Below, one piece after another: positions 16,836 through 61,757 of a DNA stretch of 64,000 nucleotides; position 1 is the stretch's first letter; each line of letters opens with the position of its first letter. The stretch is from Siphonodentalium dalli (taxonomy: Eukaryota; Mollusca; Scaphopoda; Gadilida; Siphonodentaliidae), in assembly GCA_032622095.1 (NCBI GenBank), contig CP136063.1, positions 214,475,982 to 214,539,981 of the forward strand. The letters run 5' to 3'. The notes under the pieces are model-generated. The model was not told where the DNA came from. It did not search any database and saw only the letters and a program-made list of their open reading frames with translations. Both the position numbers and the translations under genes were made by a program.

Positions 16836-17276
16836 ACTGGTGGACCCGACTTCGTCCGGGATGTTCCCCTCTGCTTTTCGGAGAATTGCGCGATTTAACC
16901 TTGAATTGACAATTTTAAAGGTGAAAGTCATGTCGGGTCACGATTTGACCCGTCCAAAACACTCCCCGGACAAAAGTCACGACAAAAGTACCCGTCGAAA
17001 TCCGCCCGGATTTACCCGATTTGACCTTGAATTGACAATTTTGGGACAAAAGTAACAGCATGTATTAAATTTCGTTGAAATACTTCCGTTTTACCAGATT
17101 TGACCTTGAATTGATCTTTTTGAATGTCAAAGTCAGGTCGGGATCAAGATTTGACCCGTCCAAAATACTCCCTGGAAATAATTTCCCCTAGGTATCAAAT
17201 TTCGTCAAATCTGTCCGGCAGTTTTCCCGGCCATAGCTAACAGACAAACAGACAGACAAATGTCCAAAATATATAT
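16836..17276 (-). mobile_element. Helitron-like relic
   Basis: On the minus strand the right-hand hairpin CCCGGACGAAGTCGGG is the same as in the 19-23 kb Helitrons and is followed by a decayed end (CCACCAGT instead of CTAGT). The other end has the family phrase ATATATTTTGGACA followed by TTGTCTGTCTGTTTG. The interior keeps 'gacttgaaatt'-like pieces (TTGACCTTGAATTGACAATT). Non-autonomous; no Rep/helicase. Confidence 0.6.
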
Positions 17277-17280
17277 TAAA

Positions 17281-17655
17281 CTAGACTTCGTTCGGACTAT
17301 TTAGGGATTTTTTGTGATCGCCTCCATCTGGACAGTACCGAGTATATACAGCGTCTGGCCAAACTATTGTTCAATTGGTCCAGGAACATGCCTATATCAA
17401 CACGTTCGAGAACATGGTCCCATGTGAAATTGGACCCGTCCATATTGCTCCCGGGATCGAAGTAGTCCTACACACAAATTTTTAATCGGATCGGTCAAGG
17501 TCCAGAAACATGCCTATGAGCGAGGTCAAGTTGACACGTTAAATACCAAATCCGAGTCGGATCAGTCGAGCAGTGTTAGCGTCTATAACACATACACACA
17601 TGCATTCATGCATACACGCATACATACATACAGGTGTTCCAAAATGAATAATCGA
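17281..17655 (-). mobile_element. Helitron-like relic, adjacent to the previous one
   Basis: Minus strand: ends in AGTCCGAACGAAGTCTAGT, i.e. the family hairpin in degenerate form directly before CTAG|T (CTAG at 17281-17284). The other end carries ATTCATTTTGGAACACCTG followed by GTATG repeats, matching the family's start. It abuts the neighbour with only 4 bp between, as the tandem copies at 21002/21003 do. Confidence 0.55.
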
Positions 17656-19047: not shown

Positions 19048-19785
19048 TCTATTATATATTTTGAAAGATCTGTGTGTGTGTGTATGTGTTTGTTTGTGTG
19101 TTTGAAATTGATGGACTCCAAAACGACTAAGCCAATTCCGATGAAATTTGGTATTTGGATGTGTTTTCGGCCGGAGACGAACATAGGCATATTTATTTGT
19201 CCGTGCGAGGTCAACTTTTCACGTGCGGAGGTCAAATCTATTTTTACGCCGTTTTTGCGCTAATATATTTCAGTTCGGTGCTCACAAATCGATTCGATAT
19301 AGCGCGAATAATAAATTGCCAGTCATATAATTTGCACGGTTAGAATCTGTGTGGCTTCATCTTTCCAACGATATATAATATGTATGTATCCGTTTTAGTT
19401 ATCTGCCTCAATTATTAGGTACAAGTGGTACAATGCTTTTATCGGGATAAAATCAATGCGTAATTTCTATGACGTCGTCAGAGGTCATAAAGTTAGATTA
19501 CGTTAACTCTCACCCTGCCGATGCATTTGACTGTGTCGCGTTAACTCATCACCGGCCGAGGTATCCGCAAATGACATTGGGCTATATATCTCGGAAACGG
19601 GTGTAGCTATCGACTTGAAATTTGGTATGTGAATGTATCTTGCCCCGGTTACGAATTTTATCGGGTCGCCGAGCACGCGCGACACCAGCTTCGCGCATGC
19701 GCAGACCAGATCTAGGAAACGGGTGGAGCAATCGACTTGAAATTTGGTTTTTGAATAGCCCGGACGAAGTCGGGTCACCTTCTAG
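19048..19785 (+). mobile_element. non-autonomous Helitron, copy R1a (738 bp)
   Basis: Starts TCTATTATATATTTTGAAAG after an A and ends CACCTTCTAG before a T, the A|TC...CTAG|T signature of Helitrons. A hairpin (CCCGGAC-GAA-GTCGGG, one bulge) lies about 11 nt before the CTAG end, as expected for the 3' terminator. A GTGTGTGTG tract follows the start. No Rep/helicase coding region, so mobilised in trans. Small open frames inside are not conserved genes. It differs from R1b at four or more sites (for example t19109 versus c20326) and appears identical to R1c. Confidence 0.88.
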
Positions 19786-20264
19786 TATATATATATATCT
19801 GCTAATTTTCTTTTTGTTGCAATGACTATTGTTTTATACCTATCGCGGAAATCATCTTCTATTTTGATTGTGAGCCATGTGATTTTAAAAGCACCAGCTA
19901 CCGATCAAAATACGTAAATTTGAAAAGTCCGTGCATGGAATTTACAAGGTCAGCTGACGAGGATCACGAAGCGATCAATATTATTTTCCACCCAGCATTG
20001 CTGCAGCATTATTGATACATGCACATTCGGTCAACCCTCAATTATGGCTTCAAACTTGCCGTTTCGGAAGTCTGTGCTTAGTTTTATGTTTGTTAACTAT
20101 CGAATAGCGATTAATTTTTATTTAAATATTTATAAAGAACAAAATACGCTTCATAATATCACCCCTGTGTGGCCCCAATATACGGAACACGTGTATTTGT
20201 TAGACCTGGTCGAGTTCGCAAAAATAACTATGCCATGTCAGAAATGGTAACGCGCTCAATGTCA
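19786..20264 (+). other. segment S (479 bp) between two Helitron copies
   Basis: Unique-looking sequence lying between R1a and R1b and repeated, apparently without change, at 21741-22219. It begins with an AT run and ends gtca, the A before R1b. No gene recognised; short frames (e.g. 20044-20250) lack any domain. It could be host DNA or cargo carried between two co-oriented Helitron ends. Confidence 0.8.
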
Positions 20265-21002
20265 TCTATTATATATTTTGAAAGATCTGTGTGTGTGTGT
20301 ATGTGTTTGTTTGTGTGTTTGAAATCGATGGACTCCAAAACGACTAAGCCAATTCCGATGAAATTTGGTATTTGGATGTGTTTTCGGCCGGAGACGAACA
20401 TAGGCATATTTATTTGTCCGTGCGAGGTCAACTTTTCACGTGCGGAGGTCAAATCTATTTTTACGCCGTTTTTGCGCTAATATATTTCAGTTCGGTGCTC
20501 ACAAATCGATTCGATATAGCGCGAATAATAAATTGCCAGTCATATAATTTGCACGGTTAGAATCTGTGTGGCTTCATCTTTCCAACGATATATAATATGT
20601 ATGTATCCGTTTTAGTTATCTGCCTCAATTATTAGGTACAAGTGGTACAATGCTTTTATCGGGATAAAATCAATGCGTAATTTCTATGACGTCGTCAGAG
20701 GTCATAAAGTTAGATTACGTTAACTCTCACCCTGCCGATGCATTTGACTGTGTCGCGTTAACTCATCACCGGCCGAGGTATCCGCAAATGACATTGGGCT
20801 ATATATCTCGGAAACGGGTGTAGCTATCGACTTGAAATTTGGTATGTGAATGTATCTTGCCCCGGATACGAATTTTATCGGGTCGCCGAGCACGTGCGAC
20901 ACCAGCTTCGCGCATGCGCAGACCAGATCTAGGAAACGGGTGGAGCTATCGACTTGAAATTTGGTTTTTGAATAGCCCGGACGAAGTCGGGTCACCTTCT
21001 AG
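20265..21002 (+). mobile_element. non-autonomous Helitron, copy R1b (738 bp)
   Basis: Same structure and length as R1a. Preceded by A (20264), begins TCTATTATATA, ends CTAG at 20999-21002. The next base (21003) is the T that starts R1c, so its right junction is an exact head-to-tail joint with another copy. Confidence 0.88.
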
Positions 21003-21740
21003 TCTATTATATATTTTGAAAGATCTGTGTGTGTGTGTATGTGTTTGTTTGTGTGTTTGAAATTGATGGACTCCAAAACGACTAAGCCAATTCCGATGAA
21101 ATTTGGTATTTGGATGTGTTTTCGGCCGGAGACGAACATAGGCATATTTATTTGTCCGTGCGAGGTCAACTTTTCACGTGCGGAGGTCAAATCTATTTTT
21201 ACGCCGTTTTTGCGCTAATATATTTCAGTTCGGTGCTCACAAATCGATTCGATATAGCGCGAATAATAAATTGCCAGTCATATAATTTGCACGGTTAGAA
21301 TCTGTGTGGCTTCATCTTTCCAACGATATATAATATGTATGTATCCGTTTTAGTTATCTGCCTCAATTATTAGGTACAAGTGGTACAATGCTTTTATCGG
21401 GATAAAATCAATGCGTAATTTCTATGACGTCGTCAGAGGTCATAAAGTTAGATTACGTTAACTCTCACCCTGCCGATGCATTTGACTGTGTCGCGTTAAC
21501 TCATCACCGGCCGAGGTATCCGCAAATGACATTGGGCTATATATCTCGGAAACGGGTGTAGCTATCGACTTGAAATTTGGTATGTGAATGTATCTTGCCC
21601 CGGTTACGAATTTTATCGGGTCGCCGAGCACGCGCGACACCAGCTTCGCGCATGCGCAGACCAGATCTAGGAAACGGGTGGAGCAATCGACTTGAAATTT
21701 GGTTTTTGAATAGCCCGGACGAAGTCGGGTCACCTTCTAG
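21003..21740 (+). mobile_element. non-autonomous Helitron, copy R1c (738 bp)
   Basis: Begins immediately after the CTAG of R1b. Carries the same diagnostic bases as R1a (aaattga, ggttacg, cgcgcg, gcaatcg), not those of R1b. Ends CTAG at 21737-21740 followed by the AT run of the second S segment. Confidence 0.88.
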
Positions 21741-22219
21741 TATATATATATATCTGCTAATTTTCTTTTTGTTGCAATGACTATTGTTTTATACCTATCG
21801 CGGAAATCATCTTCTATTTTGATTGTGAGCCATGTGATTTTAAAAGCACCAGCTACCGATCAAAATACGTAAATTTGAAAAGTCCGTGCATGGAATTTAC
21901 AAGGTCAGCTGACGAGGATCACGAAGCGATCAATATTATTTTCCACCCAGCATTGCTGCAGCATTATTGATACATGCACATTCGGTCAACCCTCAATTAT
22001 GGCTTCAAACTTGCCGTTTCGGAAGTCTGTGCTTAGTTTTATGTTTGTTAACTATCGAATAGCGATTAATTTTTATTTAAATATTTATAAAGAACAAAAT
22101 ACGCTTCATAATATCACCCCTGTGTGGCCCCAATATACGGAACACGTGTATTTGTTAGACCTGGTCGAGTTCGCAAAAATAACTATGCCATGTCAGAAAT
22201 GGTAACGCGCTCAATGTCA
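21741..22219 (+). other. segment S, second copy (479 bp)
   Basis: Appears identical to 19786-20264, offset by exactly 1955 bp. Part of the tandemly repeated R-S-R unit. Confidence 0.85.
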
Positions 22220-22957
22220 TCTATTATATATTTTGAAAGATCTGTGTGTGTGTGTATGTGTTTGTTTGTGTGTTTGAAATCGATGGACTCCAAAACGACT
22301 AAGCCAATTCCGATGAAATTTGGTATTTGGATGTGTTTTCGGCCGGAGACGAACATAGGCATATTTATTTGTCCGTGCGAGGTCAACTTTTCACGTGCGG
22401 AGGTCAAATCTATTTTTACGCCGTTTTTGCGCTAATATATTTCAGTTCGGTGCTCACAAATCGATTCGATATAGCGCGAATAATAAATTGCCAGTCATAT
22501 AATTTGCACGGTTAGAATCTGTGTGGCTTCATCTTTCCAACGATATATAATATGTATGTATCCGTTTTAGTTATCTGCCTCAATTATTAGGTACAAGTGG
22601 TACAATGCTTTTATCGGGATAAAATCAATGCGTAATTTCTATGACGTCGTCAGAGGTCATAAAGTTAGATTACGTTAACTCTCACCCTGCCGATGCATTT
22701 GACTGTGTCGCGTTAACTCATCACCGGCCGAGGTATCCGCAAATGACATTGGGCTATATATCTCGGAAACGGGTGTAGCTATCGACTTGAAATTTGGTAT
22801 GTGAATGTATCTTGCCCCGGATACGAATTTTATCGGGTCGCCGAGCACGTGCGACACCAGCTTCGCGCATGCGCAGACCAGATCTAGGAAACGGGTGGAG
22901 CTATCGACTTGAAATTTGGTTTTTGAATAGCCCGGACGAAGTCGGGTCACCTTCTAG
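22220..22957 (+). mobile_element. non-autonomous Helitron, copy R1d (738 bp)
   Basis: Carries the R1b variant bases (aaatcga, ggatacg, cgtgcg, gctatcg). Ends CTAG at 22954-22957 and is followed by TATATTATATA, consistent with the AT-rich target into which the whole array is set. Confidence 0.88.
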
Positions 22958-22991: not shown

Positions 22992-23371
22992 CTAGCAGAT
23001 GAGCCCGACGTTGTCCGGGCTATTCAAAAACCAAATTTCAAGTCGATAGCTCCACCCGTTTCCGAGATCTGGTATGCGCATGCGCGAAACTGGCGTCGCA
23101 CGGGCTCGGCGACCCGATAAAATTCGTATCCGGCGCAAGATACATTCACATAGCAAATTTCAAGTCGATAGCTCCGCCCGTTTCCGAGATCTCGTCTGCG
23201 CATGCGCTGCATGTGCGTCGCACGGGCTCGCCAATACGACAAGGCCGACCGCCTGGTCAAACTACACACACGTACCAAGTTTCGTCCCGATCGGTCGAGA
23301 ATCGTAGATTTGTATAAATGACATACATACAGACATACAGACAAACAGAGGTCTTCAAAATATATAGGAGA
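22992..23371 (-). mobile_element. short inverted Helitron of the same family (380 bp)
   Basis: On the minus strand it starts A|TCTCCTATATATTTTGAAG and ends with hairpin CCCGGACAACGTCGGG, then CTCATCTG and CTAG|T (CTAG at 22995-22992). Ends and terminal ~100 bp match the 738-bp copies, but the interior is shorter and different (two GCGCATGCGC-containing half repeats). Opposite orientation to the R array, 34 bp away. Confidence 0.8.
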
Positions 23372-45306: not shown

Positions 45307-45715
45307 ATAACCCTTTACCCAACAGAAGGGCCCTGTGCCAATGCATTCTCTTATATATGCGAGTCGACCATAGGTCGCCTCGCATATATAAGAGAATGCA
45401 TTGGCTTAACACATTAAAAATTATAAAATTGTTAAAGAATGTAAGAAAAAATTGTAAAAAGTGTTAAAAAAAGATTATTTTAGGCCAATGCATTCTCTTA
45501 TATATGCGAGGCGACCTATGGTCGACTCGCATATATAAGAGAATGCATTGGCACAGGGCATAACTGTAACTATCACAATGTGATCAAGGAGCCGGTTCCA
45601 ATGATATCCATATTTGTATGGTTCTATTGAGACAGAACGAAGTTATTTTAGGCTGTTGAAGCTTTATTTGGCCGGTTTTGGCCGGTTTTGGCCGGTTTGT
45701 TGGGTAAAGTGATAA
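45307..45715. mobile_element. piggyBac-like MITE with paired palindromes (401 bp)
   Basis: Element 45311-45711, ends CCCTTTACCCAACA / TGTTGGGTAAAGTG, flanked by ATAA on both sides. It contains two 69-bp near-perfect palindromes (45337-45405 and 45484-45552), which are inverted relative to each other, and a terminal GGCCGGTTTT triplet repeat. The sister copy at 61432-61753 is flanked by TTAA. Four-base TTAA-type targets with CCCTTT ends fit piggyBac. An empty-site paralogue exists at 46190-46276. Confidence 0.88.
45337..45405. repeat. 69-bp near-perfect palindrome
   Basis: GCCAATGCATTCTCTTATAT continues to CGAG, then TCGACC-ATA-GGTCGC and the inverse arm. Only one T:C mismatch in 33 pairs. 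Copies: 45484-45552, 46115-46183, 61458-61526 and 61536-61604. Confidence 0.95.
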
Positions 45716-61427: not shown

Positions 61428-61757
61428 TTAACCCTTTATCCAACAGAACGGCCCTGTGCCAATGCATTCTCTTATATATGCGAGTCGACCATAGGTCGCC
61501 TCGCATATATAAGAGAATGCATTGGCTTTTTTTAGGCCAATGCATTCTCTTATATATGCGAGGCGACCTATGGTCGACTCGCATATATAAGAGAATGCAT
61601 TGGCACAGGGCATAACTGTAACTATCACAATGTGGTCAAGGAGCCGGTTCCAATGATATCCATATTTGTATGGTTCTATTGAGACAGACCGAAGATATTT
61701 TAGGCTGTTGAAGCTTTATTTGGCCGGTTTTGGCCGGTTTGTTGGGTAAAGGGTTAA
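61428..61757. mobile_element. piggyBac-like MITE with paired palindromes (322 bp)
   Basis: Element 61432-61753, ends CCCTTTATCCAACA / TGTTGGGTAAAGGG, flanked by TTAA at 61428-61431 and 61754-61757. The two 69-bp palindromes (61458-61526, 61536-61604) are only 9 bp apart, versus 78 bp in the copy at 45311-45711, and the GGCCGGTTTT repeat is present twice, not three times. Same family, different target (TTAA). Confidence 0.9.

What the first reader, a model, noticed from the sequence alone, without database searches (positions are those of the whole stretch)
19048..22957. Composite Helitron R-S-R duplicated exactly head to tail
Four 738-bp copies with A|TC...CTAG|T borders are arranged R1a-S-R1b|R1c-S-R1d. 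R1a/R1c share one set of variants and R1b/R1d another, with a 1955-bp offset throughout. Unequal recombination between R copies would give R-S-R-S-R with a single R between S segments. Here two complete R copies abut at CTAG|TC with no base between. That joint is what rolling-circle transposition or a circular intermediate of the whole R-S-R unit, using the outer ends and skipping the inner terminator, would make. S (479 bp) would then be captured cargo. The lack of visible differences between the two 1955-bp halves means either a very recent event or an assembly artefact.
Basis: partly seen in the sequence, partly recalled or inferred. Interest (0 to 1): 0.75.

Follow-up and report, generated by a model that had tools for sequence, protein, structure and literature searches.

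The report
Helitron pair block duplicated head-to-tail
Two copies of a small non-coding jumping gene, with the DNA between them, appear copied as one block exactly end to end; this probably reflects known rolling-circle behaviour, but ordinary recombination after a simpler insertion could also have made it.

Summary
Four 738-bp R copies (19048-19785, 20265-21002, 21003-21740, 22220-22957) and two 479-bp S segments form two 1955-bp halves without a difference. The duplication borders equal the R ends to within 1 nt, and R1b abuts R1c as CTAG|TC. R looks like a non-autonomous Helitron: TC...CTAG ends and A|T insertion sites, with a 380-bp minus-strand relative (22992-23371) sharing both ends. 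R's own 3' hairpin is weak. S starts with T and ends with A, as host DNA between two independent A|T insertions would. R1c shares R1a's derived variants. Best reading: R-S-R was copied as a unit by Helitron rolling-circle activity with the inner terminator bypassed, as a circle-derived dimer or by re-insertion at its own A|TC end. This is not proven. Canonical insertion at A|TC also makes CTAG|TC (PMC2267711, passages), and a single-R tandem insertion plus one unequal exchange with an uninserted chromosome gives the same order. No host genome is held, so copies of S elsewhere, the empty site and reads could not be checked. Tandem Helitrons, circles and terminator bypass are already published.

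The parts
19048..19785 (+). R1a, 738-bp Helitron-like element, A|TC...CTAG|T
   Evidence: identical to R1c
19786..20264 (+). S, 479 bp, first copy; begins with T, ends with A
   Evidence: no other match in the window than its second copy
20265..21002 (+). R1b, 738 bp, preceded by A, followed directly by R1c
   Evidence: differs from R1a at 4 positions
20999..21004 (+). head-to-tail joint CTAG|TC between R1b and R1c
21003..21740 (+). R1c, 738 bp, identical to R1a; preceded by G of CTAG rather than A
21741..22219 (+). S, second copy, identical to the first
22220..22957 (+). R1d, 738 bp, identical to R1b; followed by T
22992..23371 (-). 380-bp relative of R, A|TC...CTAG|T, supports the family ends
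   Evidence: about 199 bp of R's 3' part at 91.5% (R1a) or 93.0% (R1b)

Best explanation
R is a short non-autonomous Helitron-like element. Two R copies inserted separately at two A|T sites 479 bp apart, leaving host DNA S between them. Helitron transposase supplied from elsewhere then treated the pair as one composite element: it started at the 5' TC of R1a, passed R1a's inner terminator, ran through S and R1b, and ended at the CTAG of R1b. The R-S-R copy then became a head-to-tail dimer in one of two ways: a circle with a CTAG|TC joint was copied or integrated as a dimer, or the copy re-inserted canonically at the A|TC site at its own 5' end. Shown: anatomy, exact borders, identity of the halves, R1c carrying R1a's variants. 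Inferred: two independent insertions, terminator bypass, and a rolling-circle or circular intermediate.
For: Duplication borders equal the R borders to within 1 nt and the two halves are identical. A|T flanks at both R insertion sites and at the 380-bp relative. R1b matches the relative at the 3 variant positions it covers (602, 631, 683) and R1a does not, so R1a's variants look derived; R1c has all of them. Recombination from R-S-R alone gave no R|R. Helraiser makes precise CTAG-TC circle junctions, its circles are active, and it captured 3' flanking DNA in about 11.7% of events, at least 36% without the hairpin (PMC4778049, passages). R's hairpin is weak, which would fit bypass.
Against: The CTAG|TC joint also arises by canonical insertion at A|TC (PMC2267711). 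A two-event route without composite movement gives the same structure. The same weak hairpin must serve as the final terminator at R1d, so the hairpin argument cuts both ways. No R-S-R unit or circle elsewhere could be sought. Tandem Helitrons are said often to have 3'-truncated inner copies (PMC7492417, passage), which is not so here.
Confidence: 0.5

Rival explanations
1. Single-R tandem insertion plus unequal crossing-over. With R1a-S-R1b in place, one R copy inserted exactly next to R1a or R1b (canonically at A|TC, or at CTAG|T), making R|R on one chromosome. One unequal exchange with a chromosome lacking that insertion then gave R-S-R|R-S-R. No composite ever moved and S is passive host DNA.
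For: Enumeration with the 4 variant sites gives 16 two-event routes (two pairs of them share an intermediate). Adjacent Helitrons joined as CTAG|TC by consecutive insertion are reported in maize (PMC2267711, passages).
Against: It needs two events in the right order, and the inserted R must equal R1a or R1b, or the exchange must fall near an end of R (before position 62 or after 683 of 738), since no third R type is seen.
Confidence: 0.25
2. Assembly artefact: one R-S-R unit in the organism, written twice.
For: The two 1955-bp halves have no difference; no reads or genome were available.
Against: The borders fall on transposon ends to within 1 nt and the array has no leftover of flanks; an assembler has no reason to stop there (inference). 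At 95% identity or more the next longest direct repeat in the window is 214 bp, so the window is not full of false duplications.
Confidence: 0.12
3. Ordinary tandem duplication by break repair or replication error, with the breaks placed at R ends by transposase nicks but without any transposition.
For: The borders are at sites a Helitron transposase would nick; 0-1 nt of shared sequence is compatible with end joining.
Against: Exact joining without lost or added bases at both ends is unusual for end joining (general knowledge). It adds no prediction of its own.
Confidence: 0.08

Closest known systems
Tandem head-to-tail Helitrons of the bat Myotis (Pritham and Feschotte 2007, not held; known here through PMC2267711 and PMC5876387) and the adjacent pair in maize (PMC2267711)
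   Same: CTAG directly followed by TC with no base between
   Different: As described in those passages, they join Helitrons to each other; here the repeated unit is Helitron-S-Helitron with host-like DNA inside and all four copies complete
Helraiser circles and 3' terminator bypass (PMC4778049, PMC5876387)
   Same: Precise CTAG-TC joint; bypass of the first terminator would carry flanking DNA to a later one
   Different: Shown with a reconstructed bat element in cell culture; here only a genomic end product is seen and the transposase is unknown
Composite, chimeric and tandem Helitrons of Fusarium and relatives (PMC5148889)
   Same: Several termini in one unit; a triple tandem explained either by repeated 5' insertion or by replication of a circle
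   Different: Those are Helitron2-type elements with asymmetric terminal inverted repeats; here the ends are canonical TC/CTAG

Membership tests
Canonical Helitron (Helitron1), non-autonomous | 5' TC and 3' CTRR ends | tested here: met
   TC...CTAG in all 4 R copies and in the 380-bp relative
Canonical Helitron (Helitron1), non-autonomous | Insertion between A and T, no target-site duplication | tested here: met
   A before and T after at the sites of R1a, of R1b/R1d and of the relative; no flanking duplication seen beyond AT-rich sequence. No empty site was available, so this rests on the filled sites
Canonical Helitron (Helitron1), non-autonomous | Stable hairpin shortly before the 3' end | tested here: inconclusive
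   R: -3.3 kcal/mol, z -0.25, 78 of 200 shuffles fold as well; relative: -6.4, z -2.14, 9 of 200. A looser stem rule hits 6 of 176 CTAG occurrences counted on both strands, 5 of them in this family
Canonical Helitron (Helitron1), non-autonomous | Autonomous RepHel partner in the genome | not testable with these tools
   no whole genome held
Tandem (rolling-circle) Helitron array | Head-to-tail units joined as CTAG|TC with no base between | tested here: met
   20999-21004
Tandem (rolling-circle) Helitron array | Unit present elsewhere, or circles with the joint detectable | not testable with these tools
   no genome or reads

The most novel reading that the evidence does not exclude
Two ordinary non-autonomous Helitrons flanking unrelated host DNA act together as a composite rolling-circle transposon, as paired insertion sequences do in bacteria. 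The pair leaves as a circle with the inner terminator ignored and ends up as an intact dimer, so that any host segment lying between two co-oriented R copies could be mobilised.
Probability: 0.3. Interest if true: 0.55.

Novelty: new member of a known kind. Interest (0 to 1): 0.35.

Why it matters
If R-S-R moved as a unit, it would be a natural and recent example of terminator bypass between two complete Helitron copies, with the outer ends used and the inner ones ignored, and a clean locus for asking whether Helitron tandems come from circular dimers, self-targeted re-insertion or recombination. If recombination made it, it is a warning that an exact CTAG|TC joint in an array does not by itself prove rolling-circle concatenation.

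Tried and rejected
Recombination from R-S-R alone was rejected: no adjacent R copies appeared in 8218 states (3 rounds, chromosomes capped at 9 tokens).

Deciding from the flanks whether S is local or arrived with R led nowhere. The 3' flanks at the three sites are AT-rich (12, 11 and 12 of 12; 6.35% of the 6800 A|T sites in the window reach 11; a test chosen after seeing the flanks), the 5' flanks less evenly (12, 6 and 11 of 12). S and F both begin with a TATA-type run and L ends in one, so L-S and L-F continuity look equally good.

Exact-pattern scans for R's end, R's start and an internal R block in viral contigs, for an R block in prokaryote genomes, and for a piece of S in viral contigs found nothing, as expected for a eukaryote. 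Rfam and tRNA scans of the window were empty. Pfam on 9 of the 34 ORFs of 100 aa or more gave two weak hits below the curated cut-offs (PAN_1, Lectin_C); an animal host is a guess from these.

Literature: (held open-access library; two searches listed only 15 of 50 and 20 of 41 papers) show tandem, adjacent, composite and chimeric Helitrons. I saw no report of a duplicated Helitron-host-Helitron block, but I read only passages of seven papers (PMC5876387, PMC4778049, PMC2267711, PMC10701932, PMC5148889, PMC7492417, PMC10095026), so absence from print is not claimed.

Full report
What is there. The finding is exact. R1a 19048-19785, S 19786-20264, R1b 20265-21002, R1c 21003-21740, S 21741-22219, R1d 22220-22957. 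R1a and R1c are identical, R1b and R1d are identical, and the two types differ by 4 substitutions in 738. The two 1955-bp halves have no difference; by the rule of three that puts their divergence below about 0.15% (my arithmetic). The periodicity stops at the R borders: 0 nt beyond on the left and 1 nt (T) on the right.

What R is. The four copies run TC...CTAG. The three distinct insertion points (L|S for R1a, S|F for R1b/R1d, and that of a 380-bp minus-strand relative at 22992-23371) have A before and T after. The relative shares R's 5' end and about 199 bp of its 3' part, at 91.5% to R1a and 93.0% to R1b, so the ends are not read from one duplicated sequence only. No ORF of 150 aa overlaps R, and the two ORFs tested from this block (20157-20477, S into R1b; 19924-20247, within S) gave no Pfam match. 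The hairpin expected before CTAG is in place but weak in R (z -0.25; 78 of 200 shuffles fold as well) and better in the relative (z -2.14; 9 of 200). I call R a non-autonomous element of canonical Helitron type, with one feature inconclusive and the transposase partner untested.

What S is. S begins with T and ends with A, which is what host DNA left between two separate A|T insertions shows. R1a and R1b therefore look like independent insertions. At the three variant positions that the relative covers (602, 631, 683) R1b has the relative's base and R1a does not (alignment with the variants; position 62 lies where the alignment is gapped). So R1a's variants look derived, and R1c, sharing all four, descends from R1a or its immediate source. 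The order is then: two R insertions, then block duplication.

How the block was doubled. Borders exactly on element ends, with almost no shared bases, point to the Helitron machinery. Helraiser experiments give the parts: precise CTAG-TC circle junctions, active circles, and capture of 3' flanking DNA in about 11.7% of events, at least 36% when the hairpin is removed (PMC4778049, passages). [quoted passage not shown] The weak hairpin of R would fit bypass, but the same hairpin must end the event at R1d, so this is only suggestive.

What weakens the circle argument. PMC2267711 (passages) points out that a Helitron inserting canonically at the A|T made by a host A and the first T of an existing Helitron gives exactly CTAG|TC. 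Thus R-S-R could have re-inserted at its own 5' end without any concatemer. Nor does the R-S-R|R-S-R order need composite movement. From L-R1a-S-R1b-F, recombination alone made no R|R (8218 states, 3 rounds, capped at 9 tokens). But one single-R insertion beside R1a or R1b, then one unequal exchange with the uninserted chromosome, gives the observed order and the four variant sites in 16 listed routes, of which two pairs share an intermediate. The enumeration weighs nothing; it shows possibility, not frequency.

Artefact. Identity of the halves fits an assembly error, but an error would have to start and stop on transposon termini. I give it 0.12. Among other direct repeats of 100 bp or more in the window, the longest at 95% identity or above is 214 bp (98.1%), and a 366-bp pair stands at 89.3%.

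What could not be done. The host is unidentified; two Pfam hits below the cut-offs (PAN_1, Lectin_C) hint at an animal.

Placement. Works like: tandem Helitrons with terminator bypass. Member of: canonical-type non-autonomous Helitrons, hairpin inconclusive. Known: tandem joints, circles, bypass, and composite Helitrons by self-insertion (PMC5148889, passages). Unusual: the repeated unit is Helitron-host-Helitron with all copies complete, whereas inner copies in tandems are said often to be 3'-truncated (PMC7492417, passage). Interest is moderate: a neat recent case whose mechanism is testable, not a new kind of system.

Noticed in passing
window 17240-17300, minus strand (joint at 17281|17280): A possible second head-to-tail joint between two diverged elements of the same end type...GAACGAAGTCTAG directly followed by TTTAATATATATTTTGG, which resembles R's 5' end with TT for TC. 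The upstream element's 3' end seems shortened, so this may be chance.
   Followed up: partly
window 16841-16858, minus strand: The 14-base core of R's 3' hairpin region (CGGACGAAGTCGGG) recurs exactly outside the four R copies, followed by CTAT rather than CTAG at the expected place.
   Followed up: partly
window 45308-45688 and 61429-61740: Two stretches (100 and 214 bp) at 98% identity shared by sites 16 kb apart, beside an inverted repeat at 61451-61611: looks like a recent inverted-repeat element.
   Followed up: no
window 19785, 22957 and 22992 (3' ends): The 3' flanks of the three insertion sites are AT-rich (12, 11, 12 of 12 bases), more than most A|T sites in the window: perhaps a target preference.
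   Followed up: partly
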